From Corynebacterium sp. P3-F1 (GTDB lineage Bacteria; Actinomycetota; Actinomycetes; Mycobacteriales; Mycobacteriaceae), in assembly GCF_030503635.1 (NCBI RefSeq), contig NZ_CP129965.1:930001-994000 (forward strand): a stretch of DNA of 64,000 nucleotides, written 5' to 3'. Position numbers and translations under genes: made by a program. Positions 2,156 through 60,052 of this stretch are shown here, piece by piece. The first letter of the stretch is position 1; every line of letters starts with the position of its first letter. The notes beneath the pieces are model-generated. The model had not been told where the DNA came from and made no database searches. It saw only the letters and a program-made list of their open reading frames with translations.

Positions 2156-3548
2156 CCAGTTCGTTGTCGTAGCCAACCGCCTGCCAGTCGACCGAGTCGA
2201 CGGCAGGTGGGTGGCTTCTCCGGGCGGGCTGGTTTCCGCCCTCGCACCCGTGCTCAGGGCCAATAAGGGCTGCTGGGTGGGGTGGCCCGGGGAACCGGGA
2301 GCGTACTTTGAGCCATTCGACAACGACGGCATCACCCTCCACGCGGTGCAGCTGGATGAGGAGGACTTCCACCAGTTCTACGAAGGCTTTTCCAATTCCA
2401 CCCTTTGGCCCCTGTACCACGATCTGATTGTCACGCCGGAGTACCACCGGTCCTGGTGGCAGCGCTACCGCAGCGTGAACGAGAAGTTCGCGCGTGTAGC
2501 CGCCGATGTCGCCGCCGAGGGTGCGACTGTCTGGGTGCAGGACTACCAGCTCCAATTGGTGCCAGGCATGTTGCGCGAGATGCGCCCCGACGTGACCATC
2601 GGCTTCTTCCTTCACATCCCCTTCCCCAGCCCTGACCTCTTCCGGCAGCTGCCGTGGCGTGCAGAGGTACTCCGCGGGCTGGAAGGCGCCGACCTGATCG
2701 GTTTCCAAAGGCAGCGCGACGAGTCCAACTTCCGCGACCTCGCCGTGACCTGCCGCAGCCCGGAGCTCCAAGGCAGGGAAGCCGGCAACACCGCAGGCAC
2801 CACAGGCACCGCAGTAGCCCGCGCAGCAGACGACGCGGCAAACATCCCCCGGACCGGCACCTTCCCCATCTCCATCGACGCCTCCGAGTTCAGCCTCGCA
2901 GACGAATCGGCGATCGCCGCAGTCCGCGGTTCCGTGGCCAACCCGCGGACGCTCATCCTGGGGGTCGACCGCCTCGACTACACCAAGGGGATTCTCCAGC
3001 GCCTCACTGCGATAGAGGAGCTGCTCAAGGAAGGTCGGCTCGAATCCGTCGCCATGATTCAGGTGGCCACACCGTCGCGCGAGCGCATCGCCAGCTACCA
3101 GAAGACCCGCGCGGGCGTGGAAGAAGCCGTCGGGCGCATCAACGGCCGCTACGGCTCTCTGGGCAACCCAGTCGTGCACTACGAACACCACTCCATGCCC
3201 AAATCGCAGCTGCGCAACTACTACTCCGCCGCAGATATCATGCTGGTCACCCCATTCAAGGACGGAATGAATCTCGTGGCCAAGGAGTACGTCGCGTGCC
3301 ACCCGGACGGCAGCGGCGCCCTGGTGCTTTCGGAATTCGCGGGGGCTGCAGTAGAGCTTGACCAGGCTCACCTGTGCAACCCGTTCGACGTGGAGTCGGT
3401 GAAGGGGGCGATCATGGCGGCCGTCGATAAGCACGGCTCTGAGGAGGCGCGCGACGCGATGCTTGCGATGAATGCCCAAGTCCTCGAACACGACGTCGCG
3501 CGGTGGGCTGATTCCTTCCTCGAGGCGCTCCGCGAGGTCGAGCGATGA
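2145..3548 (+). CDS. otsA: Trehalose-6-phosphate synthase (GT20)
   Basis: Transfers glucose from a nucleotide sugar to glucose-6-phosphate, giving trehalose-6-phosphate; with OtsB this makes trehalose, which corynebacteria also need for mycolate glycolipids. The 467-residue protein shows the GT20 landmarks in order: NRLPV at 10-14, GGLVSALAP, VWVQDYQLQLVP, FFLHIPFPSPDLF, DRLDYTKGI (Arg/Lys phosphate binders) and PFKDGMNLVAKEY. Between about residues 208 and 240 there is an Ala/Thr/Gly-rich stretch (GNTAGTTGTAVARAADDAAN) that looks like an inserted surface loop. Translation is coupled at both ends: the start overlaps the Lys-rich gene, the stop overlaps the lipoprotein ATG by four bases. Confidence 0.95.
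   Translation: MRDNQFVVVANRLPVDRVDGRWVASPGGLVSALAPVLRANKGCWVGWPGEPGAYFEPFDNDGITLHAVQLDEEDFHQFYEGFSNSTLWPLYHDLIVTPEYHRSWWQRYRSVNEKFARVAADVAAEGATVWVQDYQLQLVPGMLREMRPDVTIGFFLHIPFPSPDLFRQLPWRAEVLRGLEGADLIGFQRQRDESNFRDLAVTCRSPELQGREAGNTAGTTGTAVARAADDAANIPRTGTFPISIDASEFSLADESAIAAVRGSVANPRTLILGVDRLDYTKGILQRLTAIEELLKEGRLESVAMIQVATPSRERIASYQKTRAGVEEAVGRINGRYGSLGNPVVHYEHHSMPKSQLRNYYSAADIMLVTPFKDGMNLVAKEYVACHPDGSGALVLSEFAGAAVELDQAHLCNPFDVESVKGAIMAAVDKHGSEEARDAMLAMNAQVLEHDVARWADSFLEALREVER
3422..3432 (-). repeat. GCTTATCGACG motif copy
   Basis: Exact copy in otsA, antisense to the gene; the gene codons there read Val-Asp-Lys. Confidence 0.85.
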
Positions 3549-3994
3549 AACACCTCGTCACCGCCCTGTGGGTACTGTGCCTGTTCCTGTCCTTGGCTGC
3601 CTGCGGGAACGAACCCGACCACATGCTCGCGGGCCGCACGTGGGAGGTCACCGCCGTCTACACCGACCCCGAACTCCCCGGAGCCGTGCCCGGTGACGCC
3701 GCCGGTCGCGCCCTCATCGTCTTCGGCGCCGAGTCGCTCACCGCCCGCACCGCCTGCGCCCCGCTCCAGGCCGGCGCCGAGGTCAACGACGACGAAGTGC
3801 GCCTCAAAGGTGTCCGTGTCGGCGACGTCCGCGACGACTGCATCGGCGGCTCCCGCCGCGTCCACGACCAGCTGACCAGCCTTCTCACCGAGGGCGCCGA
3901 ATTCGATGTCGCGCACCTCACCGACGACGTAATCACCCTCAAGCTGCGCTCCGACGTCCTCGACCGCCCGACAATCAAACTGGTGGCGCAGTAA
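3545..3994 (+). CDS. Lipoprotein, META-like
   Basis: 149 residues with a short lipoprotein signal peptide: MKHLVTALWV, a hydrophobic core, then lipobox LAAC with Cys20 as the lipidation site, so it is expected on the outer face of the membrane. The mature part (LAGRTWEVTAVY…, repeated beta-strand pattern, two Cys about 25 residues apart, …DVLDRPTIKLVAQ) resembles META/HslJ-type domains, but I assign this only tentatively. It lies between otsA and otsB, starting with a four-base ATGA overlap with otsA, in the place of cg2908 in C. glutamicum. No catalytic motif is visible. A link to trehalose metabolism is only suggested by position. Confidence 0.8.
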   Translation: MKHLVTALWVLCLFLSLAACGNEPDHMLAGRTWEVTAVYTDPELPGAVPGDAAGRALIVFGAESLTARTACAPLQAGAEVNDDEVRLKGVRVGDVRDDCIGGSRRVHDQLTSLLTEGAEFDVAHLTDDVITLKLRSDVLDRPTIKLVAQ

Positions 3995-4019
3995 CACCAT
4001 CCGCCAGGAAGGATCAGCA

Positions 4020-4844
4020 ATGCTCCCCTCCCCGCACACCTCCATCGAACGCCTCGCAGGTGCCGACACTCTCCTGGTCTGCATGGATTTCGACGGCACC
4101 ATCTGCCCGCTCGGCACCGATGCCTACACCGTCACACCCGACCCGCGAGCCATCGCCGCATTAAAGACGCTCGCCCAGCTACCCGGCACCGACGTGGCCA
4201 TCCTGTCCGGCCGGCACCTCGATGGCCTGCGGAAGGTCTGCCCGCTCGGCCCACCCGTCACGCTGGTCGGCTCCCACGGCGCAGAACCCACTACAGGGGG
4301 ACCCGAACTCAGCCCCGACGACCTCGCGTACCTCGCGGAAATCCAGCACTCACTCGAGCAGCTTATCGACGCCTCCTCAACCACACTCCCCGGCGCCTTC
4401 GTCGAGATCAAGCCCTACCAGCGAGTTTTGCATGTGATGAAGCTCGCCGAATCCGATCCAGCCGCTGCAGCCGCGATCCTGCAGCAGGCCGAGGACCTGC
4501 CCAGTCACGGCCGCCCCGTCACCCCGGGCCACAATATCCTAGAGTTTTCTGCCCTCGACATCACCAAAGGCAGCTGGCTCGAAGCCGAGAAGACCCGGTA
4601 CTCCGCCACGCTCTTCGCCGGCGACGACGTGACCGACGAGACCGCCCTGAAAGTCCTAGACACCAGCCCCGGCGCGGATGTGGGCATCAAGGTGCGCCCC
4701 GCCGGGGCCGGGAACACCGGCGGGGCGTTCTCAGACACCGCGGCGAATTACCAGATCGGCTCGGTTTCCCAGGTCGCAGATTTCCTCACCGAGCTCGCGG
4801 CGGCGCGACAGTCCGCCCACGCCGAAACTCCGTCGGCAAAATGA
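4020..4844 (+). CDS. otsB: Trehalose-6-phosphate phosphatase
   Basis: HAD-superfamily phosphatase that removes phosphate from trehalose-6-phosphate. In 274 residues the expected motifs appear in order: DFDGTI (motif I with the nucleophile Asp, about residues 22-27), SGRHLDGL (motif II), GSHGAE, KPYQRVLHV, and GDDVTDE (motif IV, Mg2+ binding). Start ATG at 4020 follows GAAGGATC. It is separated by 25 bases from the lipoprotein gene and forms the end of the trehalose operon. Its last 59 bases overlap the convergent lacI-type gene, so no room is left for a normal terminator between them. Confidence 0.95.
   Translation: MLPSPHTSIERLAGADTLLVCMDFDGTICPLGTDAYTVTPDPRAIAALKTLAQLPGTDVAILSGRHLDGLRKVCPLGPPVTLVGSHGAEPTTGGPELSPDDLAYLAEIQHSLEQLIDASSTTLPGAFVEIKPYQRVLHVMKLAESDPAAAAAILQQAEDLPSHGRPVTPGHNILEFSALDITKGSWLEAEKTRYSATLFAGDDVTDETALKVLDTSPGADVGIKVRPAGAGNTGGAFSDTAANYQIGSVSQVADFLTELAAARQSAHAETPSAK
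4361..4371 (+). repeat. GCTTATCGACG motif copy
   Basis: Exact copy in otsB, sense; codons read Leu-Ile-Asp-Ala. Confidence 0.85.
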
Positions 4845-5928
4845 CCCGCGGCGCTGTCTCCGGCTCGGCGCGGCGCGAAGCAACTGGCGCGGGCTGGTCG
4901 TCGCCGGTCGCGTCGAGAAGCTCACTGAGCACCTGCCCGACTGTCACGCCTTTACGCCGATTCGGCTGCACAACCGTGGTCAGTCCGCGGGCGAGCGCCT
5001 GCTCCACCCCATCAAAACCCGTCACGGAAACATCCCCCGGCACATTCAAGCCAGCTTCCCCGCAATAGTCCAGCACACCGAACGCCATTGAGTCGGTGGT
5101 GCACAGAACAGCGGTCACGTCGGGGGCAAGAGTGAAGAGCTCACGGGCGGCGTCGATAGCCGAGGTGTGGTCGTTGAAGTGGCGGGTGACGATGGGCACA
5201 TCCCCAATGCCGGCTTCGGCGAACACCTCGAGCGCCCCCGTGATGCGTCCGCGCTGCACGTGCATGTCCGCGCCCGTCACGTCCGCCGGGCTCACCGCGC
5301 CCTCGCGCGACTCGTCGCCGAAGAGCCGCTTGCCCACAATGCCCAGGCGCCGGTGCCCCGCCTCCACCAAAGCACGGGCGGCGGGTTTGATGGCCTCCGC
5401 GTCCTCGATGCCCACATACGCGATCCCCGTCGTCCCGCCGCCAGCTGCCGCATCGGCAGGGTACGGCTGGTCGCACACCACCACCGGCACACCCCTGGCC
5501 CGGACAGCCTCGAGATGGGGCTCGGATTGGGGGACGGAGTAGACCACGAAGGCGTCGACAAGCGCCGCCCCGATGAGCGGGCTCGCCGCCGTTTCCTGAT
5601 TGGGGCCCAACGGAATGAGCGTCAGCGCATTACCCGCGCCCGCGGAGCTCTCACTGAGCCCCGCAAGAAAATCTATCGACGCCTGATCCTCAAACGCATA
5701 CGCTAAATGCTCCGTCAGAATCACCCCGACCGCACCCGCCTGACGCGTACGCAAACTCCGCGCCGTCGGATCCGGCCCCGCATACCCGCGCGCCCGCGCC
5801 GCCGCCAAAATCCGCTCCCGCAGCTCCGGCGACAACTGGTCCGGGTGGTTATACGCATTCGACACCGTCGTGCGGGACACCCCCACCTCCGCCGCGATCG
5901 ATGCCAACGTGCCCCGTCTTTGAGCCAT
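4786..5928 (-). CDS. ipsA: LacI-family regulator, IpsA-like
   Basis: 380-residue LacI-type repressor: N-terminal helix-turn-helix and hinge (TLASIAAEVGVSRTTVSNAY, then RARGYAGPDPTARSLRT), followed by a periplasmic-binding-protein-like effector domain (VCDQPYP, GIVGKRLFGDE, AVLCTTDSMAFGVLDY, SVTGFDGVEQA). In C. glutamicum the LacI gene directly after otsB is ipsA (cg2910), which senses myo-inositol and controls inositol-phosphate synthase; the same position is why I propose the symbol, so treat it as a synteny-based call. The gene is convergent with otsB (59-base overlap) and divergent from the esterase gene, with only 18 bases between the two starts. Confidence 0.85.
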   Translation of the reverse strand: MAQRRGTLASIAAEVGVSRTTVSNAYNHPDQLSPELRERILAAARARGYAGPDPTARSLRTRQAGAVGVILTEHLAYAFEDQASIDFLAGLSESSAGAGNALTLIPLGPNQETAASPLIGAALVDAFVVYSVPQSEPHLEAVRARGVPVVVCDQPYPADAAAGGGTTGIAYVGIEDAEAIKPAARALVEAGHRRLGIVGKRLFGDESREGAVSPADVTGADMHVQRGRITGALEVFAEAGIGDVPIVTRHFNDHTSAIDAARELFTLAPDVTAVLCTTDSMAFGVLDYCGEAGLNVPGDVSVTGFDGVEQALARGLTTVVQPNRRKGVTVGQVLSELLDATGDDQPAPVASRRAEPETAPRVILPTEFRRGRTVAPPRAR

Positions 5929-5946: not shown

Positions 5947-6846
5947 GTGATTGTGAACCGCCGCACCATCGAGCACGACGGCATGCAGCGCCGCTTCACC
6001 GAAGTGTTACCCGACTCCCCCGCCGACGACGCGCCCGTCGTTCTGTTCCTGCACGGTTCGCTCCAATCCGGCAGCGTCGCCCGCCGCTTCACCGGCAACA
6101 CCTTCGACGCGCTCGCCGACCTCGGATGCATCGTGCTCTACCCCGACGGCGTGGACAGGCACTTCAACGACCACCGCGTCGGCTTCCAGGAAAAAGCGCG
6201 CCAATTGCTTATCGACGACACCTCCTTCCTCTCCTCCCTCCTCCCCCCGACAACCGGCCCCGTGATCGGCTGCGGTTTCTCCAACGGCGGCGCGATGATC
6301 CAACGCTTCGCCCTCGAACGCCCCGGTGTGCTGGACGGCATCGCCTGCTTCGGCTCCGCCTGGCCCACCGACGACAATCTGCTCCCTGAGCTGGCAGCCC
6401 TCACCGGCAACTGGGTTCCCACACCAGTCCTGTGTGTGCAGGGCACCGCCGACCCCCTCGTGCCCTACAACGGCGGCCCGTCCGGCATCGGCACCGCCAA
6501 CCGCGGAACCGCCCGCTCCGCCATCGACTCCGCCCGCCACTTCGCCGAGCTCAACGGCCTGAACCCGGCACACCACACCACCGCCTCCGCCGACGGCGTG
6601 CGCGTGGACCGCTTCGGCCCCGGCCTGCCCGGCTCCCCCGCACGCGGGGGCTCCGCCTCCGCCTCCAGCGAATCCAGCCCCGTCCCCTCTGCCGTTCCCT
6701 TGCACACTCCCGCCCCTGTCGAGCTATGGAGCATAGAAGGCATGGGCCACCTCGTACCCAGCCCGAAAAAGCTGGATGACAAGATCGGCCCAGGCACGGA
6801 CATAGTAGTCGGCGCCGAGCTGGTGGCTCAGTTCTTCGGCTTGTGA
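5947..6846 (+). CDS. Secreted-type/PHB-depolymerase-like esterase (alpha/beta hydrolase)
   Basis: About 299 residues with an alpha/beta-hydrolase fold of the polyhydroxybutyrate-depolymerase/LpqC kind. Seen: VVLFLHGSLQSG (oxyanion region), GCGFSNGGAMIQRFA with the nucleophile Ser in G-F-S-N-G, VQGTADPLVPYNGG (acidic residue) and SIEGMGHLVP (His). No convincing signal peptide follows the start, so it may be cytosolic. Start: GTG 5947 (or GTG 5953); the open frame extends back to 5707 but that part is antisense to the regulator gene. A Pro/Ala/Ser-rich loop (GSPARGGSASASSESS) is inserted shortly before the catalytic His. Substrate unknown. Confidence 0.8.
   Translation: MIVNRRTIEHDGMQRRFTEVLPDSPADDAPVVLFLHGSLQSGSVARRFTGNTFDALADLGCIVLYPDGVDRHFNDHRVGFQEKARQLLIDDTSFLSSLLPPTTGPVIGCGFSNGGAMIQRFALERPGVLDGIACFGSAWPTDDNLLPELAALTGNWVPTPVLCVQGTADPLVPYNGGPSGIGTANRGTARSAIDSARHFAELNGLNPAHHTTASADGVRVDRFGPGLPGSPARGGSASASSESSPVPSAVPLHTPAPVELWSIEGMGHLVPSPKKLDDKIGPGTDIVVGAELVAQFFGL
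6207..6217 (+). repeat. GCTTATCGACG motif copy
   Basis: Exact copy in the esterase gene, sense; codons read Leu-Ile-Asp-Asp. Confidence 0.85.
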
Positions 6847-7910: not shown

Positions 7911-9360
7911 TGCCGTCCTCCTTCGGGTCCTTCAGCGACCACGTTGCACCGTCGGGGGTGTCGGTGACCTCAATCCCAGCGGCAGCCAACCGGTCGCGCA
8001 CGTCGTCGGCGGTAGCCCAGTCTTTTTCGGTGCGGGCCTGCGCACGGCGGTCCAGTTCGGCCCGGACGAGCGTGTCCAAGGCGGCCTCGGCAGCCGCGCC
8101 ACCGCCAGCACCAGCACCGGATCCAAAGCCGGCGCCACTAGCGGCACCGGCCCTCTCCGCCCACTCGACAGGGTCCACACCGAGCACGGCAGTCATCGCC
8201 CGGACGGAACCAGCCAACTCGCGGGCCTTTGCCGCGTCGCCGTCCGCCAGTGCCTTATTACCGGCGCGTACAGCGTTGTGGATCTCGGCCAACGCCTTCG
8301 GCACACCGAAGTCCTCGTTCATCGCCGCGGCGAAGGCATCTGTCCACGTACCGCGCTCAACGGGGCCGGTGGCGGAGGTGCGGGAAATGAGGTCCTCGAT
8401 GCGTCGATAAGCAACTGCCGCTTCTTTGAGCGCTGCCAGCGAGTACTCGAGCACGCTGCGGTAATGCGCGGACCCAAGGTAGTAGCGCAGCTCGACTGGG
8501 CGCACAGTGTCCAGCATGTTGTCGATGCTGAGCACATTGCCCAGAGACTTGGACATCTTCTCGCCCGCCATGGTCACCCAGTGGTTGTGCATCCAGTAGT
8601 TCGCGAAACCGTCGCCCGCGGCATGGGACTGCGCCTGCTCGTTCTCGTGGTGCGGGAACTGCAGGTCAAGGCCGCCGCCGTGAATGTCGAACTCGCCACC
8701 CAGGTACCAGGTGGACATCGCGGAGCACTCCAAGTGCCACCCCGGGCGGCCGTCGCCCCACGGCGTAGGCCAGCTCGGCTCACCCGGCTTCGCCGCCTTC
8801 CACAACGCGAAATCGTGCGCACCGCGCTTGCCGCGGTTGTCCGACTCGCCTTGCTCCATCTCCTCGACACGGTTGCCGGACAAGGAGCCGTAATCCGACC
8901 CCTCGGCCGCGACCCACGCCGCGACGTCGAAATACACCGAGCCATCGGCGGCGTACGCAAAGCCGTTATCCATCAGGCGCTGCATGTAATCGACCATCTG
9001 AGTGACGAACCCGGTCGCGCGCGGCTCCACGCTCGGCGGAAGCACCCCCAACGTGTTGTAGGCGCGGGTGAATTCGCGCTCGTACGTGGACACCCACTCC
9101 CACCAGGGGCGGCCGTTCTCCGCCGCCTTGGTGAGAATCTTGTCGTCGATGTCCGTCACATTGCGCACGAACGCCACATCCTGGCCATTCGCCAGGAACC
9201 AACGGCGCACAATGTCGAACGCCACCCCCGAACGCAGATGCCCGATGTGCGGCGAGGACTGCGGAGTCGCACCACACACGTACATCGAGACATGCCCCTC
9301 ACGGACAGGCTCGAAATCGCGGAGAGAGCGGGTCGCGGTATCGAAAATGCGTTGAGTCAC
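7903..9360 (-). CDS. cysS: Cysteinyl-tRNA synthetase
   Basis: Class I aminoacyl-tRNA synthetase charging tRNA-Cys. 485 residues from a GTG at 9360. HIGH-type motif [10 protein letters not shown] near residue 36, the Zn-binding Cys at CGATPQ and in [18 protein letters not shown] with zinc-binding His/Glu, and KMSKSLGN (KMSKS loop). The helical C-terminal part carries a Gly/Ala-rich insert ([19 protein letters not shown]) between the DALR-like helices and the end, not typical for the family. Operon with rlmB downstream (8-base overlap). Confidence 0.96.
8402..8412 (-). repeat. GCTTATCGACG motif copy
   Basis: Exact copy in cysS, sense; here the codons read Ala-Tyr-Arg-Arg, a different frame from the usual Leu-Ile-Asp. 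Confidence 0.85.
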
Positions 9361-11861: not shown

Positions 11862-12344
11862 TTAGAGTGGGTACTTTCGTTCCACCAGCGCGGTCGCAAT
11901 CGCAGCCCTGCCTTGGCCGTCCCCGGTGAAACCCATGTGGTCCGTCGTCGTCGCGCTCACAGACACCGGCGCGCCCAGCGCTTCCGACAACACCTGCTCC
12001 GCTTCCTCGCGTACCGGCCCCATCTTCGGCGTCTGCGCGATCAGCTGCGCCGACACGTTCACCACGCGGAAGCCACGCTTATCGACGAACCCCCTCAACT
12101 CCCCCAACAACCTCTCCCCCGTCACACCCGCATACTCCGGACGACCGACCCCCACGAAGCTGCCCAGGTCCCCCAGCCCCGCAGCGGAAAGTACCGCATC
12201 CACGATCGCGTGGGAAACCACGTCCCCGTCCGAATGTCCCTCACAACCAGCGGCGTCCTCAAATAGCAGGCCCGCGATCCAGCACGGTTTCCCGTCCTGA
12301 ATCTGGTGAGCGTCAAAAGCAGTGCCGACGCGCAAATCAGTCAT
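11862..12344 (-). CDS. ispF: 2-C-methyl-D-erythritol 2,4-cyclodiphosphate synthase
   Basis: MEP-pathway enzyme forming the cyclic diphosphate from CDP-methylerythritol-2-phosphate. Start placed at the ATG at 12344 because [13 protein letters not shown] gives the family's normal N-terminus (160 residues); 14 further residues upstream are open but unrelated. Metal ligands Asp and His in FDAHQ, His in [12 protein letters not shown], and the [15 protein letters not shown] loop are present. Follows ispD with an 86-base gap. In many bacteria ispD and ispF are adjacent or fused. Confidence 0.95.
12077..12087 (+). repeat. GCTTATCGACG motif copy
   Basis: Exact copy, antisense to ispF; gene codons read Val-Asp-Lys. 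Confidence 0.85.
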
Positions 12345-14776: not shown

Positions 14777-16276
14777 ATGAAGAAACGCACCGTCCACACC
14801 TGCACCGAGTGCGGTTACTCGTCCCCGAAGTGGCTCGGCCGCTGCCCAGAATGCGGCGCGTGGGGCACCCTCCAGGAGCTGTCCAGCGCCCCGGCCGCGA
14901 GTTTGTCCCGCTCGCCCGGCTTGAGCGCCGGCGCACCCCGCGGACTCACGCCCACCAGCGCCGCCCAGCCAATCACGAAAATCACGGCCAGCTCGGCTTA
15001 TCGACGCCCCTCCGGCATCTCCGAACTCGACCGCGTCCTCGGTGGCGGCGTTGTCCCCGGCTCAGTGGTTCTCCTTTCCGGCGAGCCCGGTGTGGGCAAG
15101 TCGACCCTGTTGCTTGAGGTCGCGAGCCGCTGGGCTGCCGCTGACGGCACCCCGGCCACGGCCTCCGGTGCTACGGGCACCGCAGATGCCGTCGCTCAAA
15201 GCCAGGCCAGCCAGAGCGGTTCCTCGCAGAACCACACCGATCAGAACCATCTCTCTTACGGGCGCACCGCCCTTTACGTCACCGCGGAGGAGTCCGCTGC
15301 CCAAGTCCGCGGCCGCGCGGAGCGTACCGGCGGACTCAACGACAGGCTCTACCTCGCCGCAGAATCCAATCTGGACGTGGTGTTCGGGCACGTCGAACAG
15401 GTGAAGCCGAGTTTGCTCATCGTCGACTCAGTGCAGACCATGCAGGCGCCGGGCGTAGAGGGCGTCGCGGGCGGTGTCGCCCAGTCGCGCGCTGTCACCG
15501 CAGCGCTGACCACTCTGGCGAAAACGACGAATCTGCCCATTCTTCTCGTCGGCCACGTAACCAAAGACGGCAACGTCGCCGGGCCCCGGGTCCTGGAGCA
15601 CCTCGTCGATGTTGTCCTCACTTTCGAAGGCGACCGACAAACAAGCTTGCGCATGCTCCGCGGGCTGAAAAACCGTTTCGGGGCCACCGACGAAGTCGGC
15701 TGCTTCGAGCAGACGTCCGACGGCATCCGCGAAGTCGCCGACCCATCCGGGCTCTTCCTGTCCCACCGCGGCCAGACCCCGGACGGCTCCGCCGTCACTG
15801 TGGCAATGGACGGGGTGCGCCCGATCCTCGCCGAGGTGCAGGCCCTCACCGTCGACCCCGTCAACAAATCGCCCCGCCGCGTTGTGACCGGGCTGGACTT
15901 CAACCGTGTCCCCATGGTGCTGGCGGTTCTCCAGGCGCGCTGTGGGGAGCGCACCAACGACAAAGACGCCTACGTCGCCACCGTCGGCGGAATGCGCATC
16001 ACAGAAACGGCGACAGATCTCGCGGTAGCGCTGGCTACCTGGTCGAGTCTCCACAACCAGCCCCTTCCCCCGAAGACAGTCGTGATCGGCGAGGTTGGTC
16101 TCGCGGGCGAGCTGCGGCGCGTCCCCAACCTCGACCGCCGCCTCGCTGAAGCTGCGCGACTCGGGTACCAGAACGCCATCGTGCCCGCCGGCAGCGACAC
16201 CCGGATCCCCGGCATGAGAGTCCAGGGGATGGGGACGCTGGGGGAGGCGATCGCGTGCGTCGATAAGCGGAAGTAG
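14777..16276 (+). CDS. radA: DNA repair ATPase RadA
   Basis: Helicase-like ATPase that promotes branch migration during recombination. N-terminal zinc finger with Cys9, Cys12, Cys23 and Cys26 (CTECG…CPECG), Walker A GEPGVGKST at about residue 102, the RadA-specific KNRFG near 297, and a C-terminal Lon-protease-like domain. 499 residues; about 40 of these (122-160) are a Thr/Ala/Gln/Ser-rich loop (TASGATGTADAVAQSQASQS) between the Walker A helix and the next strand, absent from typical RadA (~460). disA follows after 12 bases, the usual actinobacterial pairing. Confidence 0.95.
   Translation: MKKRTVHTCTECGYSSPKWLGRCPECGAWGTLQELSSAPAASLSRSPGLSAGAPRGLTPTSAAQPITKITASSAYRRPSGISELDRVLGGGVVPGSVVLLSGEPGVGKSTLLLEVASRWAAADGTPATASGATGTADAVAQSQASQSGSSQNHTDQNHLSYGRTALYVTAEESAAQVRGRAERTGGLNDRLYLAAESNLDVVFGHVEQVKPSLLIVDSVQTMQAPGVEGVAGGVAQSRAVTAALTTLAKTTNLPILLVGHVTKDGNVAGPRVLEHLVDVVLTFEGDRQTSLRMLRGLKNRFGATDEVGCFEQTSDGIREVADPSGLFLSHRGQTPDGSAVTVAMDGVRPILAEVQALTVDPVNKSPRRVVTGLDFNRVPMVLAVLQARCGERTNDKDAYVATVGGMRITETATDLAVALATWSSLHNQPLPPKTVVIGEVGLAGELRRVPNLDRRLAEAARLGYQNAIVPAGSDTRIPGMRVQGMGTLGEAIACVDKRK
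14996..15006 (+). repeat. GCTTATCGACG motif copy
   Basis: Exact copy in radA, sense, frame reading Ala-Tyr-Arg-Arg. Confidence 0.85.
16258..16268 (-). repeat. GCTTATCGACG motif copy
   Basis: Exact copy at the very 3' end of radA, antisense; gene codons read Val-Asp-Lys, three codons before the stop. Confidence 0.85.
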
Positions 16277-23757: not shown

Positions 23758-23768
23758 CGTCGATAAGC
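23758..23768 (-). repeat. GCTTATCGACG motif copy (intergenic)
   Basis: Exact copy 22 bases before the ornithine carbamoyltransferase start, between the ClgR-like palindrome and its ribosome binding site. Confidence 0.85.
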
Positions 23769-41637: not shown

Positions 41638-41639
41638 TT

Positions 41640-49049: not shown

Positions 49050-49060
49050 GCTTATCGACG
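49050..49060 (+). repeat. GCTTATCGACG motif copy (in ppa terminator)
   Basis: Exact copy; its last five bases form the outer end of the ppa terminator stem. Confidence 0.85.
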
Positions 49061-49900: not shown

Positions 49901-50194
49901 ATGCAGTCAGTACAAGTCACCGAAGTGCCAGAAAACGCCCAGCTTATCGACGTCCGCGAACCCGACGAGTTCTCCGATGTCCACGCCGAAGGCGCCGTGA
50001 ATCTCCCTCTGTCCAATTTCGTCGCACTGGCGGGCCAGATCGATCTGGAGCAGCCGGTTTATGTTATTTGCAAGTCCGGCGGCCGGTCCGTAGAGGCGTC
50101 GCAGTACATCGAGGAAGTCCTCGGCACGGAGGCGATCAATGTGCTCGGCGGGACCCAGGCGTGGGTCAGCGCGGGGCTGCCCACGGCGCAGTAA
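49901..50194 (+). CDS. Single-domain rhodanese-like sulfurtransferase
   Basis: 97 residues, small cytosolic rhodanese fold. Residues QLIDVREPDEFSDVHAEGAVNLPL form the first half; the active loop is VICKSGGRSVEA with the catalytic Cys after VYVI. ATG 49901; divergent from the sortase-fold gene with 32 bases between starts. These proteins move sulfur or protect thiols; the specific partner is unknown. Confidence 0.92.
   Translation: MQSVQVTEVPENAQLIDVREPDEFSDVHAEGAVNLPLSNFVALAGQIDLEQPVYVICKSGGRSVEASQYIEEVLGTEAINVLGGTQAWVSAGLPTAQ
49942..49952 (+). repeat. GCTTATCGACG motif copy
   Basis: Exact copy in the rhodanese gene, sense; Leu-Ile-Asp-Val. Confidence 0.85.
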
Positions 50195-50925: not shown

Positions 50926-50965
50926 AAGGGCCCGCCTTAAGCATTGCGCTTATCGACGGGCCCTT
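50926..50965 (+). terminator. MarR-gene terminator with motif in its loop
   Basis: AAGGGCCCG (50926-50934) pairs with CGGGCCCTT (50957-50965). A second small stem TAAGC/GCTTA forms within the loop and uses part of the GCTTATCGACG motif. No long T-run follows. Confidence 0.6.
50948..50958 (+). repeat. GCTTATCGACG motif copy (in terminator)
   Basis: Exact copy spanning the loop and the first bases of the 3' arm of the MarR-gene terminator. Confidence 0.85.
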
Positions 50966-51091: not shown

Positions 51092-51700
51092 TTATTCACT
51101 GAAATAAGTACTTTTGATCGACGCTATCGTCGCCGGATTGCCCGCTGCACAGACTTTCGCAACTTCGACTGCATCGTCGTACATGCCACGGAGTGCAGCG
51201 AAACCAGAGTCGACAGCCACTGCAGCATTGAGCGGCATGCCCGTCATGAGCATCGTCCGGGCCCGAGCACCACCCACGAGACCAGCAAGTTCGGCCGCCA
51301 GGCCAGGCGGAACGGGAACGCCCATCTTCGCCACTGGAATGGCGAACCGCGCAGACGGCGCCACCACGCGGATATCGCACGCCCCCGCCAACATCGCGCC
51401 GGCACCGATCGCAGGGCCATTCACGTACGCCACCACGGCTTTCTCAGCGCCGCGGATCATGTCCACCACGCGCTTGAGCGACGGGTAGATCCCGGCGGGA
51501 TCACCGGCCGATAGATCAGCACCAGCAGAAAAGGCGGAGCCGGCTCCGGTAAGGAGGACAGAGGAGGCGTCGATAAGCGCGCGCTCCAGCTCCCCCTCGA
51601 GCGCAACGAGCAATTCTTCGCTCAGCGCGTTACGTTTTTCATCGCGGCTGAGAGTCAGCGCGACGATGCCGTCGGCGGGGCGGGTGACGTTGATCAGCAC
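51092..51700 (-). CDS. Enoyl-CoA hydratase/isomerase-family protein, short
   Basis: Crotonase fold. About 202 residues from GTG 51700, which follows a TAGTGT -10 at leaderless distance; the open frame before it is not protein-like. Oxyanion-hole motifs GAGSAFSAGADLSAGD and AVVAYVNGPAIGAGAMLAGACDI are present, with IPVAKMGVPVPPGL after them. It is ~55 residues shorter than normal (255-260), stopping before the C-terminal trimerisation helices, and the usual catalytic Glu region is not obvious. Physiological substrate unknown. Confidence 0.82.
   Translation of the reverse strand: MLINVTRPADGIVALTLSRDEKRNALSEELLVALEGELERALIDASSVLLTGAGSAFSAGADLSAGDPAGIYPSLKRVVDMIRGAEKAVVAYVNGPAIGAGAMLAGACDIRVVAPSARFAIPVAKMGVPVPPGLAAELAGLVGGARARTMLMTGMPLNAAVAVDSGFAALRGMYDDAVEVAKVCAAGNPATIASIKSTYFSE
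51568..51578 (-). repeat. GCTTATCGACG motif copy
   Basis: Exact copy in the enoyl-CoA hydratase gene, sense; Leu-Ile-Asp-Ala. Confidence 0.85.
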
Positions 51701-51707
51701 AGTGTTG

Positions 51708-51795: not shown

Positions 51796-51825
51796 CGCCT
51801 AGGAGCAAGCAACTGCTCCTAGGCG
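51796..51825 (-). terminator. ppk2 terminator
   Basis: CGCCTAGGAGCA and TGCTCCTAGGCG form a perfect 12-base stem with loop agcaac; on the minus strand TTCTTCTTT follows. It lies 20 bases after the ppk2 stop. Confidence 0.8.
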
Positions 51826-53048: not shown

Positions 53049-53059
53049 CGTCGATAAGC
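53049..53059 (-). repeat. GCTTATCGACG motif copy (intergenic)
   Basis: Exact copy between the groEL stop and its terminator, flanked by ATTCG/CGAAT that can pair across it. Confidence 0.85.
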
Positions 53060-55079: not shown

Positions 55080-56387
55080 ATGACCCTCAGGTCCAAAACT
55101 CAGGTGACCGCCTGCGCGGCAGCCGCCCTTACGGTTGGAATGGTCGGCGCAGTAGCCGCCGCTCCAGCCCACGCGCAGTCATCTCAGTCTTCATCGCAGC
55201 TGGCGCAGCGCTTCGTCGACAACGGAGACCCCATGCGGCCTGTTGCCCCGTACGACGGCACGCTCTACCGCAGTGACCTGCCCCATGTTGAACCGTCAGG
55301 CGAGCCCGGCACCGTTCTGGCCGAAGTACCCCTGGACCCAAAGGTCGGGCTCCCCAATGCCGCCGAGCAGTACCGCATCGCGTACACGACCACAGACAAA
55401 CTGGGAAAGCCCGCAGTCGCCACCGCCGCGGTTTTCCTGCCCCGCGGCGAGCGCCCAGACAGCGGCTGGCCAGTTGTCGCCTGGACCCACGGAACAGTCG
55501 GACTGGGCGACGAATGCGCCCCGTCCATCAACCCGCGCATTCCACGGGACGTGGAGTACCTGGGCAGGTGGCTCGACCTCGGATACGCGATCGTAGCGCC
55601 GGACTACGTCGGCCTCGACACCCCCGGGCTCCACAGCTACCTCAACGGTAAGCAGTCCGCGGTTGAATCCGTCGACTCCGTAGCTGCCCTGCACAATATG
55701 AAGGCCACCAAAGACAAGAACGGGCCGGTCCTGGACAAGAAATGGGCGGTCATCGGTCAATCCCAGGGCGGAGGCGTCGCCCTACACGTCGCCCACCGCG
55801 CAACCGAGCTCAGCCAGAAACTCGGCCTGGACTACCGCGGTGCGGTGGTGACAGGAGCGCCCGCCTACATCGAAGAGTTCATCACCAAGCTCGGCCCCTC
55901 CTTCCCGCCAGTTCCTCTGCCCGCCGGAATGCAGGTGTACGGCCTGTACATCCTGGGCGCGGTGCGCGAAGCCTACCCAGACATCGACTTCGATTCAGCT
56001 CTCACCGACGAAGGCCGGCGGATGATCGCCGCGGCGCAGCACGGCTGTTACTACGAAGTCGAAGACGCGGTCCGGAATGTCAATCTCACCCGCGCTTTCA
56101 AGAAGCCGCTTAGCGACGTCCCCGGCGCAGACCGCGCCATCCGCGAATTCATGGCGACCCCTGTCTCGGGTTACGACAAACCGGTGTTCATCGCCCACGG
56201 ACTCAAGGATGTCGACATGCCGGCCCCCATCGGCATGGCCTTGAACTCGGACATGTGGCTGCGCCAATTCATCGGCGCAGAGAAGAACAGCAAGGTGGAG
56301 GTTCGTTGGTACCCGACCGACCATGACGGAACGGTCAATGCCTCGACCCAGCACTCCGTTCCGTTCCTGCAGCAAATCATGCGTTAG
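55080..56387 (+). CDS. Secretory lipase (LIP family)
   Basis: Exported triacylglycerol or ester hydrolase. 435 residues, signal peptide MTLRSKTQVTACAAAALTVG…AHA-QSS. Alpha/beta-hydrolase features: WPVVAWTHGTVGLGDECAPS, WAVIGQSQGGGVALHVAHRA with the nucleophile Ser, FIAHGLKDVDMPAP with the acid, and RWYPTDHDGTV with the His. Similar lipases scavenge host skin lipids in lipid-loving corynebacteria. AGTGGGAG precedes ATG 55080. A bidirectional terminator follows. Confidence 0.9.
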   Translation: MTLRSKTQVTACAAAALTVGMVGAVAAAPAHAQSSQSSSQLAQRFVDNGDPMRPVAPYDGTLYRSDLPHVEPSGEPGTVLAEVPLDPKVGLPNAAEQYRIAYTTTDKLGKPAVATAAVFLPRGERPDSGWPVVAWTHGTVGLGDECAPSINPRIPRDVEYLGRWLDLGYAIVAPDYVGLDTPGLHSYLNGKQSAVESVDSVAALHNMKATKDKNGPVLDKKWAVIGQSQGGGVALHVAHRATELSQKLGLDYRGAVVTGAPAYIEEFITKLGPSFPPVPLPAGMQVYGLYILGAVREAYPDIDFDSALTDEGRRMIAAAQHGCYYEVEDAVRNVNLTRAFKKPLSDVPGADRAIREFMATPVSGYDKPVFIAHGLKDVDMPAPIGMALNSDMWLRQFIGAEKNSKVEVRWYPTDHDGTVNASTQHSVPFLQQIMR

Positions 56388-56531: not shown

Positions 56532-58541
56532 TCACTTCGACCGGTCGACAGCTGCCATTTTCTCCGCGGCAACCGCATCGGCTGGCGCAATGATAGGCAG
56601 GTCCTTCGCAGCCTTGGCAGTGCGGCTGTAGATGAACACGATTGCGGCCGTGAAGAGGACGCCACCGACCAGGCTGGTCCAGGCGTTCTCCTCGAAGATC
56701 TCCAGCGGGCTGTCACCCTGGGCGGCGGCAATGATGCCCGCGTTGACCACACCGAAAAGCGACTCACCGACGATGAGGCCGGTAGCACCGAGAGTGCCCA
56801 TGCGGATCGCGGACTCCGGGTTGCGCTGGTGGGATGCCCAGCGGTTGTAGAAGTGGCCGATGATCGCGCCCAACGGCACCATCACGGTGACGCTGACGGG
56901 CAGGTACATGCCCATGCCCACGGCCAGCGGAGGCAGGGAGTACTTCTTGTCCGTGGTGGCAGTGAGAATCTCATCGACGATGATCACCGCAGTGCCGATG
57001 GCGGCGCCGAGGAAGATCAGATTCCAGTTGAGGGAATCGTCGAAAATGCCGGTGGCCACCGACGACATCAAGGCGGCCTGCGGCGCGGCCAGCGCATCGG
57101 GGCCGGCCCCCTCCATGCCCTGGAAACCGAAGCCGGTCAGCATGAGGTGCAGCACCGGCGGGATGACCACGGAACCGAAGAGCACACCAATGACCAAAGC
57201 GACCTGCTGTTTCCAGGGGGTCGCGCCGACGAGCTGACCGGTCTTGAGATCCTGCAGGTTGTCGTTGGAAATGGTCGCGATGCCGAAGACGATCGCCGCA
57301 GTGAAAAGTGTGTAGGCCACCAGGGAGGTCGCACTCGCGTCGGTGCCAGCCATGAACGCGGCGATGACCAGAGCGGACGTGATCACGGCGATGATGCCCA
57401 CCGAAGAGATCGGCGAGTTCGACGCACCGATCAAGCCGGCCATGTAACCGCAGACCGAAGCGATGACCAGACCGACAACCAGAATGAAGATCACGGAGAT
57501 CGCGGTCAGGCCGAACGCGTGCTCGTGAATATCGGTGCCGCGCTGGAAATCCCACAGCAAGAAGCCGATCGGGAACATGGACAGCAAGATCACACCGACG
57601 ACGATCGGGAACGGGATGTCCTTCTCCGTGACATCCACCTCCGTGCCGGCCGCGCGCTTGCGCGAGCTGGACAGGGAGGCGCTCACGCCTTTGACCACGG
57701 GGCCCGCGATCTTCACCAGGGTCCACAGCGCCGCGACCGCCATGGTGCCCACGCCGATGAAACGGATCTCCGAGGCGAAGGTGGTGGATACGATCTCGGA
57801 GAGGTCGGTCACGGAGCCGTCGATAAGCGCGGATGTGCGCCACGGAAGCAACACGAAGAAGGAGATGACCACGCCGACGAGCATTGCGATACCGACCGTC
57901 ATGCCCACGAGGTGGCCCACGCCGATCAGCGCGAGGGAGAGCGATCCGCCCAGCATGGTCGCGCCCTTGGCGAATTTGAATGTTCCCGCGATCTCGCTGG
58001 CCGCGGCCTTCATCGCTGCGAGCAGACCGTAGAGTGCAGAGACGATGCCGCCGATGACGATGATGCGGAGGCCCTTGATATTCTCCTCGTTATGCGGGTC
58101 ACCGTCGCCGACCCGCAGCACCTCAGCCGCGGCCACGCCCTCGGGGTAGGGCAGGTCCGAGCCCGTGACCAGCGCGCGGCGTAGCGGGACCGAGAACATC
58201 ACGCCCAAGATTCCGCCGAGGGCGCACACCAACGCAGTCGTCCAGAACGGGAAGCCCTGCCAATAGCCGATCATCACCAGACCCGGCAGCACAAAGATGA
58301 TCGCGGACAAGGTTCCCGCCGCCGACGCGATCGTCTGCACAATGTTGTTCTCCTTCACATTGTGCCCGGCGAATTTGCGCAGGACAGCCATGGAGATGAC
58401 CGCCGCAGGGATGGACGTGGCAAACGTCAAGCCCACCTTCAGGCCCAGATAGACGTTCGCCGCGGTGAACACGAGCGTGATCAAGCCGCCGATGATGATT
58501 CCGCGCAGCGTGAGCTCGCGCAGTTCCGTCCGATTATCCAT
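56532..58541 (-). CDS. OPT-family oligopeptide transporter
   Basis: Polytopic inner-membrane importer of peptides or metal chelates. 669 residues from ATG 58541 with about 15 hydrophobic helices (LRGIIIGGLITLVFTAANV; TFATSIPAAVISMAVL; AALWTLVKIAGPVVKG; TALVGGVLFTAAIVFIY). The NVYLGLKVGLTFATSIPAA start and QTIASAAGT segment are OPT hallmarks. Short Lys/Arg-rich loop near residue 305. Divergent from the M20 peptidase gene 104 bases away, so peptide uptake and cleavage may be linked. Confidence 0.92.
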   Translation of the reverse strand: MDNRTELRELTLRGIIIGGLITLVFTAANVYLGLKVGLTFATSIPAAVISMAVLRKFAGHNVKENNIVQTIASAAGTLSAIIFVLPGLVMIGYWQGFPFWTTALVCALGGILGVMFSVPLRRALVTGSDLPYPEGVAAAEVLRVGDGDPHNEENIKGLRIIVIGGIVSALYGLLAAMKAAASEIAGTFKFAKGATMLGGSLSLALIGVGHLVGMTVGIAMLVGVVISFFVLLPWRTSALIDGSVTDLSEIVSTTFASEIRFIGVGTMAVAALWTLVKIAGPVVKGVSASLSSSRKRAAGTEVDVTEKDIPFPIVVGVILLSMFPIGFLLWDFQRGTDIHEHAFGLTAISVIFILVVGLVIASVCGYMAGLIGASNSPISSVGIIAVITSALVIAAFMAGTDASATSLVAYTLFTAAIVFGIATISNDNLQDLKTGQLVGATPWKQQVALVIGVLFGSVVIPPVLHLMLTGFGFQGMEGAGPDALAAPQAALMSSVATGIFDDSLNWNLIFLGAAIGTAVIIVDEILTATTDKKYSLPPLAVGMGMYLPVSVTVMVPLGAIIGHFYNRWASHQRNPESAIRMGTLGATGLIVGESLFGVVNAGIIAAAQGDSPLEIFEENAWTSLVGGVLFTAAIVFIYSRTAKAAKDLPIIAPADAVAAEKMAAVDRSK
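57818..57828 (-). repeat. GCTTATCGACG motif copy
   Basis: Exact copy in the OPT gene, sense; Leu-Ile-Asp-Gly. Confidence 0.85.
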
Positions 58542-58645
58542 GTCGAACCTTTCTAACGGTGTGTTTGCAGGAATATTACTTCCTGCGGGAACTTCACCCC
58601 AACCGTGCATACGCCGCTTTTCCAGGCGCTGGTACGTTCGAGGTC

Positions 58646-60052
58646 ATGAGCACTTTCGAACCGAACCGCGAACGGATCTTCAACGACCTTTCCGCACTCG
58701 TGTCCTTCAACTCGCCCCACTCGGTGCCGGAACTCGCCGACCAGCACGCGGCCGCCGCCGACTGGGTGGCCAGCGCGCTCGCCGAACGGGGACTCGAGGT
58801 GGAGCGCCACGCAACGGTGGACAACGCCGACGCCATCATCGCCCGCAAGCACGTCAGCGACGACGCGCCGACCGTCCTGCTCTACTCCCACTACGACGTC
58901 GTCCCGGCCGGCGACCCATCCGCATGGACAGCCGACCCCTTCACCCTCACCGAGCGCGACGGCCGCTGGTACGGACGCGGTGCCGCAGACTGCAAGGGCA
59001 ACGTCGCAATGCACCTCGAGGCACTACGGCTTATCGACGCTTCCGGCGGCACCGACGCCAACCTCGTCCTCCTCGTCGAAGGCTCCGAGGAGCTCGGCGG
59101 CGGTGGCCTGGAAAAGCTGATCGAGGAGAAACCGGAACTCTTCGCGGCCGACATCATCCTCATCGCGGATTCCGGCAACGTGGCCGTGGGCACGCCGACT
59201 CTGACCACCGCCCTGCGCGGAGGCGCCCAGCTCAAGGTCACGGTGGAAACCCTCCGCGGCGCCATCCACTCCGGCACCTTCGGCGGCCCCGCCCCGGACC
59301 CGGTCGCGGCGCTCATCCGCACTCTCGATTCGCTTCGCGACGACTCCGGCCGCACCACCATCGACGGCCTCGGCGACGCCTTGTCCGCCACATGGCCTGG
59401 CGAGCCCTACACCGCCGATGCGTTCCGCAAGGATGCCGGCGTACTCGACGGTGTCTCCCTCATGGGCGACATCGACAACGGAGGCGAGAACGCCTCCGAC
59501 ATGGTCTGGGCCCGCCCAGCCGTCACCGTTATCGGCTTCACATCCACCCCGGTCAGCGAGGCCGTCAACGCCATCATCCCGCGCGCCGAAGCCCAGCTGA
59601 ACCTCCGTGTCCCCGCCGGCATGGACCCCGCCGCAGCCGCCGATGCCCTGAAGCAGCACCTCATCGACCACACCCCATGGGGCGCCAAGGTCGAGGTAGA
59701 GATCTTCGACATCAACCACGGCTTCGCCACCGACCCCTCCCGCCCCGCCATCGCCCTGCTCGGCGAGTGCCTCGAGGAGTCGTACAAGGAGGCCTCCACC
59801 TCCGACTCCGCGCCCGCTGCCTCCGAACCCGCCGCCTCCGCGTCCTCCGACCTGGTCACCGTCGGCTCCGGCGGTTCCATCCCGCTGACCGCGACCCTGC
59901 AGAAGCACTTCCCGGACGCTGCCATCGCCATGTACGGCGTAGAAGACAACAACGCTGGCATCCACTCCGTCGACGAGTCAGTCCATCCGTTCGAGATCGA
60001 GCGTGTCGCCGTCGCCGAGGCAAAGTTCCTGCAGCGCGTGACCTCGCTGTAG
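58646..60052 (+). CDS. M20-family dipeptidase/peptidase
   Basis: Zinc amino- or dipeptidase. 468 residues from ATG 58646. Metal ligands: YSHYDVVPAGD (His, Asp), GRGAADCKGNV (Asp), VEGSEELGGGGL (Glu pair), IADSGN (Asp) and the His near the end (NNAGIHSVDESV). The lid domain follows LRGGAQLKVTVETLRGAIHSG. A Ala/Ser/Pro-rich loop (STSDSAPAASEPAASASS) is inserted before the last metal ligand. Divergent from the OPT transporter, consistent with use of imported peptides. Confidence 0.92.
   Translation: MSTFEPNRERIFNDLSALVSFNSPHSVPELADQHAAAADWVASALAERGLEVERHATVDNADAIIARKHVSDDAPTVLLYSHYDVVPAGDPSAWTADPFTLTERDGRWYGRGAADCKGNVAMHLEALRLIDASGGTDANLVLLVEGSEELGGGGLEKLIEEKPELFAADIILIADSGNVAVGTPTLTTALRGGAQLKVTVETLRGAIHSGTFGGPAPDPVAALIRTLDSLRDDSGRTTIDGLGDALSATWPGEPYTADAFRKDAGVLDGVSLMGDIDNGGENASDMVWARPAVTVIGFTSTPVSEAVNAIIPRAEAQLNLRVPAGMDPAAAADALKQHLIDHTPWGAKVEVEIFDINHGFATDPSRPAIALLGECLEESYKEASTSDSAPAASEPAASASSDLVTVGSGGSIPLTATLQKHFPDAAIAMYGVEDNNAGIHSVDESVHPFEIERVAVAEAKFLQRVTSL
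59029..59039 (+). repeat. GCTTATCGACG motif copy
   Basis: Exact copy in the M20 peptidase gene, sense; Leu-Ile-Asp-Ala. Confidence 0.85.

What the first reader, a model, noticed from the sequence alone, without database searches (positions are those of the whole stretch)
3422..59039. GCTTATCGACG, an 11-mer repeated 24 times across the window
Exact copies (start on the plus strand; m = motif on minus): 3422m, 4361, 6207, 8402m, 12077, 14996, 16258m, 17020, 18822m, 23758m, 24381, 27580m, 28458, 28622, 37900m, 41804, 43209m, 49050, 49942, 50948, 51568m, 53049m, 57818m, 59029. One-mismatch copies: 12964m, 27010, 29937m, 31323, 37383, 43050m, 62420m. A random 11-mer should appear about 0.03 times on both strands of 64 kb. 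Within genes it is read in four ways (Leu-Ile-Asp 11 times, Val-Asp-Lys 5, Ala-Tyr-Arg-Arg 3, Ala-Ser-Ile-Ser 1), so selection is on DNA, not protein. The next base is often C. The 13/11 strand split argues against Chi- or KOPS-like polar signals and favours a DNA-uptake-sequence-like, HIP1-like or protein-binding role. I know of no described equivalent in Corynebacterium.
Basis: partly seen in the sequence, partly recalled or inferred. Interest (0 to 1): 0.95.

Follow-up and report, generated by a model that had tools for sequence, protein, structure and literature searches.

The report
Corynebacterium's password for its own DNA
A short DNA word, GCTTATCGACG, and close variants of it recur hundreds to thousands of times in most Corynebacterium genomes, usually trailed by a C-rich stretch, yet are rare on the plasmids examined; the word likely acts as a password by which these bacteria would recognise and take up DNA of their own kind.

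Summary
In detail: 24 exact copies (13 +, 11 -). It is genus-wide: in 180 of 242 Corynebacterium genomes the core GMTTNNCGAYG occurs 253-2071 times, at least 5 times a reversed-word control; 50 genomes are near background. Strands balance 109,798:109,690. Species use dialects at the two free bases and position 10. All 24 window copies have C>G in the 25 bases at offsets 15-39; this tract follows the motif's strand in sense, antisense and intergenic copies. Plasmid DNA of 11 species (488 kb) has 0 exact copies, 37.9 expected at host rates, and 32 cores, 192 expected. Dialects, plasmid scarcity, no polarity and core-plus-tract design match DNA uptake sequences (DUS/USS) of Neisseriaceae and Pasteurellaceae. 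comEC is in 241 of 242 genomes, the Tad ATPase in 79 of 80 tested. Best reading: a genus-wide uptake sequence in Actinomycetota; my literature searches showed no report of one. Uptake bias is untested, no receptor was identified, and the competence genes persist in motif-less species.

The parts
3422..3432 (-). exact GCTTATCGACG; antisense in otsA-like gene
   Evidence: C13/G3 at offsets 15-39 on the motif strand
4361..4371 (+). exact GCTTATCGACG (Leu-Ile-Asp)
   Evidence: C14/G3
6207..6217 (+). exact GCTTATCGACG (Leu-Ile-Asp); conserved in L001 and L002
   Evidence: C17/G0
8402..8412 (-). exact GCTTATCGACG in cysS-like gene (Ala-Tyr-Arg-Arg); conserved in L001, L002
   Evidence: C11/G5
12077..12087 (+). 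exact GCTTATCGACG, outside my gene calls; not conserved in L001
   Evidence: C15/G0
14996..15006 (+). exact GCTTATCGACG in radA-like gene (Ala-Tyr-Arg-Arg); conserved in L001, L002
   Evidence: C11/G6
16258..16268 (-). exact GCTTATCGACG, antisense at end of radA-like gene; conserved in L001-L003
   Evidence: C14/G4
17020..17030 (+). exact GCTTATCGACG in disA-like gene; conserved in L001-L004
   Evidence: C15/G3
18822..18832 (-). exact GCTTATCGACG, outside my gene calls; conserved in L001, L002
   Evidence: C11/G7
23758..23768 (-). exact GCTTATCGACG, outside my gene calls; conserved in L001, GCTTAACGACG in L002
   Evidence: C12/G4
24381..24391 (+). exact GCTTATCGACG (Leu-Ile-Asp) in ornithine carbamoyltransferase-like gene; conserved in L001, L002
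   Evidence: C19/G1
27580..27590 (-). exact GCTTATCGACG (Leu-Ile-Asp) in ptsI-like gene
   Evidence: C14/G7
28458..28468 (+). exact GCTTATCGACG, antisense (Ala-Ser-Ile-Ser)
   Evidence: C15/G3
28622..28632 (+). exact GCTTATCGACG, antisense (Val-Asp-Lys)
   Evidence: C15/G3
37900..37910 (-). exact GCTTATCGACG (Leu-Ile-Asp)
   Evidence: C17/G2
41804..41814 (+). exact GCTTATCGACG, antisense (Val-Asp-Lys)
   Evidence: C10/G4
43209..43219 (-). exact GCTTATCGACG (Leu-Ile-Asp) in ftsH-like gene
   Evidence: C13/G3
49050..49060 (+). exact GCTTATCGACG, outside my gene calls
   Evidence: C11/G7
49942..49952 (+). exact GCTTATCGACG (Leu-Ile-Asp)
   Evidence: C9/G6
50948..50958 (+). exact GCTTATCGACG, outside my gene calls
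   Evidence: C14/G2
51568..51578 (-). exact GCTTATCGACG; outside my gene calls, but within an enoyl-CoA hydratase-like frame (51095-51808)
   Evidence: C11/G6
53049..53059 (-). exact GCTTATCGACG, outside my gene calls
   Evidence: C11/G3
57818..57828 (-). exact GCTTATCGACG (Leu-Ile-Asp)
   Evidence: C9/G6
59029..59039 (+). exact GCTTATCGACG (Leu-Ile-Asp)
   Evidence: C12/G7
4911..4921 (-). variant core GCTTCTCGACG
   Evidence: class GCTTNNCGACG enriched in relatives
5553..5563 (-). variant core GCTTGTCGACG, identical in L001
21579..21589 (-). variant core GCTTACCGACG, identical in L001 and L002
21651..21661 (-). variant core GCTTTTCGACG, identical in L001-L004 and L006
36348..36358 (-). variant core GCTTAACGACG
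37810..37820 (-). variant core GCTTCTCGACG
43050..43060 (-). variant core GCTTGTCGACG
56108..56118 (+). variant core GCTTAGCGACG
31323..31333 (+). variant GCTTATCGATG, the position-10 form of the T dialect

Best explanation
GCTTATCGACG, with the core GCTTNNCGAYG and a C-rich tract on its 3' side, is likely the DNA uptake sequence of Corynebacterium, the mark by which the natural-transformation machinery would prefer DNA of the same species. Shown: genome-wide enrichment, strand balance, species dialects, a strand-specific tract of about 30 bases, scarcity on plasmids and in low-GC stretches, and conservation between close species. Inferred: a surface receptor on or with the Tad pilus (or ComEA) binds the core, the C-tract helps binding or deformation of the DNA, ComEA and ComEC take the DNA in, and recombination of preferentially imported fragments keeps the copies in place. 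That would be the molecular drive proposed for Neisseria and Haemophilus (recalled).
For: Copy number: 180 of 242 genomes have at least 5 times the reversed-word control (median 1200 cores), 12 lie at 2.9-5 times, 50 below 2.9; exact word up to 782 copies. Outside the genus (348 genomes new in a 401-genome family sample) the core stays below about 4 times control, read from the table by eye. DNA-level selection: 55 of 74 Leu-Ile-Asp tripeptides coded CTTATCGAC, 5.2 expected; the C-tract is equal in sense, antisense and intergenic copies (C 0.46-0.48, G 0.18-0.20) and absent from the other 19 Leu-Ile-Asp codings (C 0.33, G 0.34); 24 of 24 window copies have C>G. C minus G above zero in 23 of 24 motif-bearing sequence sets, several of them small. 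Dialects: positions 5-6 and 10 vary by species (AT, CT, GA, TG, GC+T); the 10 CGATG-dialect genomes placed on a tree need one change (the branch itself has poor support). Self versus foreign: plasmids of 11 species (10 rich, C. maris intermediate) 0 exact (37.9 expected), 32 cores (191.6 expected, control 16); phage BFK20 2 cores in 43 kb (control 3), phi674 0 in 22 kb (control 1). In G156, 2-kb windows under 60% GC hold 0.10-0.15 cores/kb, 60-64% 0.69, above 64% 0.94-1.00. Maintenance: 8 of 9 aligned exact copies unchanged in L001 at 88% identity (p 8e-5), 7 of 8 in L002. No polarity: 64:71 in 400 kb; neighbouring cores prefer opposite strands, 121 same of 318 (p 2e-5). Machinery: comEC 241 of 242, Tad ATPase 79 of 80, comEA found beside comEC in 58 of 60.
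Against: No uptake or transformation data; natural competence in Corynebacterium was not found described in my searches. comEC, comEA and Tad genes are also present in motif-less genomes, so they do not track the motif. No receptor gene was found. comEC evolves only slightly faster relative to holA where the motif is absent (median ratio 2.28 against 2.01, p 0.013; seven scattered losses p 0.007; comEA p 0.08). The C-tract is absent in G062 and almost so in C. callunae. Plasmids are lower in GC than their hosts' chromosomes are likely to be (0.54-0.61), and their scarcity of the word would also fit a chromosome-organising or Chi-like signal.
Confidence: 0.68

Rival explanations
1. A Chi-like recombination hotspot: a helicase-nuclease (AdnAB/RecBCD type) reads the word and its 3' C-tract on one strand during end resection and switches to recombination.
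For: Dense, chromosome-biased, oriented signal with a strand-specific 3' tract.
Against: No polarity: 64:71 over 400 kb of G156 (75% polarity rejected, p<1e-7) and no 100-kb block beyond 23:14, though where the origin and terminus lie in that contig is not known; the 75% Chi polarity of E. coli is recalled. Eight fixed positions and one two-fold position in an 11-mer are more than known Chi words have (recalled). No helicase-nuclease family was searched here.
Confidence: 0.12
2. A chromosome-organising site (matS-, KOPS- or nucleoid-protein-like) bound by a chromosome-specific protein.
For: Frequent on chromosomes and rare on plasmids.
Against: Not polar (against KOPS); present in each of four 100-kb blocks of G156 rather than one domain; dialects and background levels in 50 of 242 species are unexpected for a segregation system. 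ori-ter position was not mapped.
Confidence: 0.08
3. A HIP1-like or methyltransferase-linked word raised by modification or mutation bias.
For: High copy, present in genes in several frames.
Against: Not palindromic; plasmids from the same genomes are poor in it; one-mismatch neighbours are common only at particular positions; a separate tract of about 30 bases goes with it. Methylases were not searched.
Confidence: 0.04
4. A coincidence of codon usage and composition, or remnants of a mobile repeat.
For: Over half of in-gene exact copies in G156 share one frame (54 of 98).
Against: Reversed-word controls of a few copies against up to 782; copies in several frames, antisense and intergenic; no common longer repeat seen in the 25-base contexts of the window copies.
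Confidence: 0.01

Closest known systems
DNA uptake sequence (DUS) of Neisseriaceae, with dialects and the ComP minor pilin receptor
   Same: 10-12 base non-palindromic word in very many copies, species dialects around a fixed core that follow phylogeny (PMC3630211, abstract read; word length and strand balance recalled). DUS dialect distributions have been used to find mobile elements (PMC7371117, title and start of abstract in a search listing).
   Different: Unrelated sequence, other phylum, diderm Actinomycetota with Tad genes rather than classical type IV pili; here two central bases are free and a C-rich 3' tract is present; no ComP-like receptor identified.
Uptake signal sequence (USS) of Pasteurellaceae
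   Same: Core word plus composition-biased tracts beside it (H. influenzae 9-base core with flanking AT-rich segments; PMC7811141, passages read).
   Different: Here the tract is C-rich and G-poor on the motif strand, about 30 bases, not AT-rich; sequence unrelated.
Chi sites
   Same: Frequent, oriented chromosomal words (recalled).
   Different: No strand polarity here; longer word; dialects.
HIP1 of cyanobacteria
   Same: Overrepresented word of debated role (PMC4390886, start of abstract in a search listing).
   Different: HIP1 is palindromic and linked there to methyltransferases; this word is not palindromic and is rare on plasmids.
Tad/ComEA transformation machinery of Micrococcus luteus
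   Same: Actinobacterial transformation with TadA and ComEA (PMC6667448, passages read); the same gene types occur in Corynebacterium.
   Different: The term 'uptake sequence' does not occur in that paper's main text.

Membership tests
DNA uptake sequence (DUS/USS) | Hundreds to thousands of dispersed copies far above expectation | tested here: met
   180 of 242 genomes
DNA uptake sequence (DUS/USS) | Both strands, no replication polarity, in coding and intergenic DNA | tested here: met
   polarity tested in the window and one 400-kb stretch
DNA uptake sequence (DUS/USS) | Dialects that follow the phylogeny | tested here: met
   one change suffices for the 10 CGATG-dialect genomes placed on the tree (of 14 strong ones); quick tree, that branch poorly supported
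DNA uptake sequence (DUS/USS) | Scarcity in plasmids and foreign DNA | tested here: met
DNA uptake sequence (DUS/USS) | Host carries transformation genes (pilus, ComEA, ComEC) | tested here: met
   but motif-less species carry them too
DNA uptake sequence (DUS/USS) | Motif-bearing DNA is preferentially bound, taken up and recombined | not testable with these tools
   needs an uptake experiment
DNA uptake sequence (DUS/USS) | A cognate receptor protein | tested here: inconclusive
   Tad clusters of 10 rich and 10 motif-less genomes show no family of three or more members exclusive to the rich ones; nothing else was screened
Chi site | Strand polarity relative to replication | tested here: not met
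   64:71 over 400 kb; origin and terminus not mapped
Chi site | Modulates a RecBCD/AddAB/AdnAB enzyme | not testable with these tools
   biochemistry needed
HIP1-type word | Palindromic | tested here: not met
   sequence itself
HIP1-type word | Cognate orphan methyltransferase | not tested
   no methyltransferase search made
KOPS | Polar along each replichore | tested here: not met

The most novel reading that the evidence does not exclude
Corynebacterium has the first DNA uptake sequence system outside Neisseriaceae and Pasteurellaceae: a genus-wide, dialect-forming bipartite mark (GCTTNNCGAYG plus a strand-specific C-rich tract) read at the cell surface by a Tad-pilus transformation machine that must cross a mycomembrane. 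Most of the genus would then be naturally competent and sexually isolated by dialect.
Probability: 0.62. Interest if true: 0.96.

Novelty: new variant of a known kind. Interest (0 to 1): 0.92.

Why it matters
Uptake sequences are known, as far as I recall and the papers seen here say, from two Gram-negative families. An unrelated, independently evolved one in a diderm actinobacterial genus that includes industrial strains and skin commensals would mean that natural transformation with self-recognition is widespread there. It would also give a third independent case for the old question of why such sequences exist, and a practical handle: DNA carrying the right dialect could make harmless industrial strains transformable. 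About 50 motif-less species beside 180 motif-bearing ones make the gain and loss of the system testable.

Tried and rejected
comEC presence as the discriminating gene: 241 of 242 genomes have it. Tad ATPase: 79 of 80 (44 motif-less and 36 rich genomes given); the 27 lowest-scoring full matches (381-416 bits) are all motif-less, but 16 other motif-less genomes score 440-487, near or within the rich range (451-483, one partial match apart). Tad gene content: no family of three or more members exclusive to the 10 rich loci; one neighbouring family (F16) is in 7 rich and 1 motif-less locus and was not followed up; flp, tadE and tadF are found in all 20 loci by profile. Relaxed selection on comEC/comEA in motif-less genomes: small effect only (56 of 60 rows used for comEC, 4 without holA dropped; 54 for comEA). 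Chance, codon usage, KOPS, Chi and HIP1 readings: see rivals. Two motif-less genomes (G029, G051) were searched for another frequent word in 80 kb each without a clear result; they hold only 6 core matches each in 97 kb, too few to judge a C-tract. BMC Genomics 2017 (PMC5217627, passages) names Corynebacterium only for CRISPR repeats in the passages seen. Literature: searches for the word, its reverse complement and dialect forms gave 2 papers and 51 papers, of which I saw the listed 2 and 20 with no Corynebacterium title; none was opened. Counts outside the genus were read from the table by eye. The host chromosomes of phages BFK20 and phi674 (C. glutamicum) and of pTP10 (C. striatum) were not identified among the handles, so those three comparisons lack a host rate.
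Full report
1. Observation. The window is a Corynebacterium chromosome: its disA is 94% identical to that of C. urinipleomorphum, and 16.3 kb align to locus L001 at 87.8% DNA identity. Gene names used in the parts list rest (otsA, cysS, radA, disA, ornithine carbamoyltransferase, ptsI, ftsH; otsA and ornithine carbamoyltransferase scores are below some models' cut-offs). The window's own genome is not held.

2. The word is genus-wide. Nine named relatives have 123-679 exact copies against 0-4 of the reversed word. Over 242 Corynebacterium genomes, 165 have at least 20 exact copies, 113 at least 100, and 77 at most 13. In 400 kb of the rich genome G156 positions 5 and 6 vary most (for example GCTTCTCGACG 34, GCTTGTCGACG 17 against GCTTATCGACG 135), position 3 less (GCCTATCGACG 10), while changes at positions 7, 8 and 10 were not seen and position 11 once. 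With the core GMTTNNCGAYG, 180 of 242 genomes reach 5 times the control, 12 lie between 2.9 and 5, and 50 below. In the 180 the strands hold 109,798 and 109,690 cores. In 68 loci of Rhodococcus, Mycobacterium and relatives the exact word does not occur, and in a family sample of 401 genomes the 348 not seen in the genus searches stay below about 4 times control by reading.

3. Dialects. Genomes poor in the exact word have other forms: GCTTGCCGATG in G010 and G013, GATTGACGACG and GCTTGACGACG in G062. GCTTNNCGATG is a main form in 14 genomes (490-1337 copies). NN preferences differ by species: AT in the window's group and G156, CT in G084, GA in G064, TG in G078, GC with T at position 10 in G010 and G013 (some samples are 20-60 kb). 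On a tree of ComEC and HolA from 60 genomes (10 T dialect, 30 C dialect, 20 motif-less, chosen for known comEC coordinates), the T dialect needs one change and the motif-less state 8; this is a quick tree with 12 open forks, and the branch that sets off the T rows has support 7.

4. A second element. From about 12 to 45 bases after the start of the motif the motif strand is rich in C and poor in G (0.50 and 0.17 at offsets 20-29 in G156; background 0.32 each). In the window 24 of 24 copies have more C than G at offsets 15-39. The bias is the same for copies sense, antisense or outside genes, is seen with the variant NN forms and with the CGATG dialect, is missing at the 17 GCTTNNCGACG sites of the plasmids and in G062, and is weak in C. 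callunae. In motif-less genomes there are too few matches to judge. So a DNA signal, not codon use, shapes it. Of 74 Leu-Ile-Asp tripeptides in G156, 55 use CTTATCGAC, with an uncommon leucine codon (CTT 979 of 9347 leucine codons); the other 19 have no tract.

5. Where it is not. Plasmid contigs of 11 species (10 rich, C. maris intermediate at 4.2 times control), 488 kb read (some plasmids in part), have 0 exact words where the genome-wide host rate predicts 37.9, and 32 cores against 191.6; the reversed control gives 16. Chromosome samples of four of these hosts gave 14, 3, 5 and 7 exact words in 80, 60, 60 and 40 kb. In 50 kb of C. striatum plasmid pTP10, 5 of 7 GCTTNNCGACG cores lie in a 5-kb stretch of chromosome-type genes (mshC, dihydroorotate dehydrogenase, undecaprenyl-diphosphate phosphatase, phosphoribosyl-ATP diphosphatase; p 2e-4). 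pET44827 and pJA144188 have 0 and 1. Phages BFK20 and part of phi674 are at control level. In G156, 2-kb windows under 60% GC have 0.10-0.15 cores/kb, 60-64% 0.69, above 64% 0.94-1.00; the longest empty stretches include an rRNA operon, an OLD-type ATPase/nuclease region and a siderophore region.

6. Maintenance and spacing. Between the window and L001, 8 of 9 aligned exact copies are unchanged, where 88% identity predicts about 2; with L002 7 of 8. Towards more distant species sites come and go or change NN form. Neighbouring cores prefer opposite strands (121 same of 318); paired opposite copies are reported for H. influenzae terminators (PMC5217627, passage read). Whether the pairs here act as terminators was not tested. 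Spacing is not more even than random (CV 1.19 exact, 1.05 core).

7. Machinery. comEC (PF03772) is in 241 of 242 genomes; the exception, G188, has a reduced motif (312 cores, control 92). The Tad ATPase is in 79 of 80 tested. comEA lies beside comEC in 58 of 60 loci by frame search. These genes do not separate motif-bearing from motif-less species. comEC is slightly faster-evolving in the latter. I take this as weak support at best.

8. Interpretation. A non-polar, chromosome-biased, dialect-forming core with an oriented flanking tract, in genomes with transformation genes, matches uptake sequences in the sequence features I could test, apart from even spacing, which is not seen. Uptake itself and the receptor are untested. 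Chi-like and chromosome-organising roles remain possible; the lack of polarity and the presence of dialects and motif-less species speak against them.

9. Literature. Seen: abstract of PMC3630211; passages of PMC7811141, PMC6667448 and PMC5217627; listings for the rest. Searches for Corynebacterium with uptake sequence, natural transformation, comEC/comEA, overrepresented words, and for the words themselves gave no report of this motif in the titles, abstract starts or passages I saw. Most subscription-journal papers are not in that library.

Noticed in passing
L151 8609-13582 (plasmid pTP10 of C. striatum): A stretch of chromosome-type genes inside a resistance plasmid carries 5 of the plasmid's 7 core motifs, as if the motif marks its chromosomal origin.
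   Followed up: partly
genome G188: The only one of 242 genomes without a comEC match also has a thinned-out motif of the T dialect (211 copies; strong T-dialect genomes have 490-1337).
   Followed up: no
G127:C1 543012-543797 (L248): comEC match with an in-frame stop in a motif-less genome.
   Followed up: no
G001, C. urinipleomorphum: comEC is found as two separate matches of lower score; gene break, frameshift or draft error not resolved.
   Followed up: no
window, whole: CCTGCAG (36 against 14 expected) and TGGCCAA are also above a third-order Markov expectation; CCTGCAGG is high in motif-less G051 too (22 against 4.9).
   Followed up: no
L087-L106 (G156), joined positions 64962, 335372, 386574: Three copies share a longer right side, GCTTATCGACGGCTCCGC, perhaps a preferred extension or local duplication.
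   Followed up: no
Tad ATPase matches: 27 motif-less genomes have clearly lower TIGR03819 scores (381-416 bits) than every full-length match of a motif-rich genome (450 or more), suggesting a divergent Tad system; whether they form one clade was not tested for all.
   Followed up: partly
L131-L140 against L141-L150: A family beside the Tad cluster (F16, about 207 aa) is in 7 of 10 motif-rich and 1 of 10 motif-less loci.
   Followed up: no
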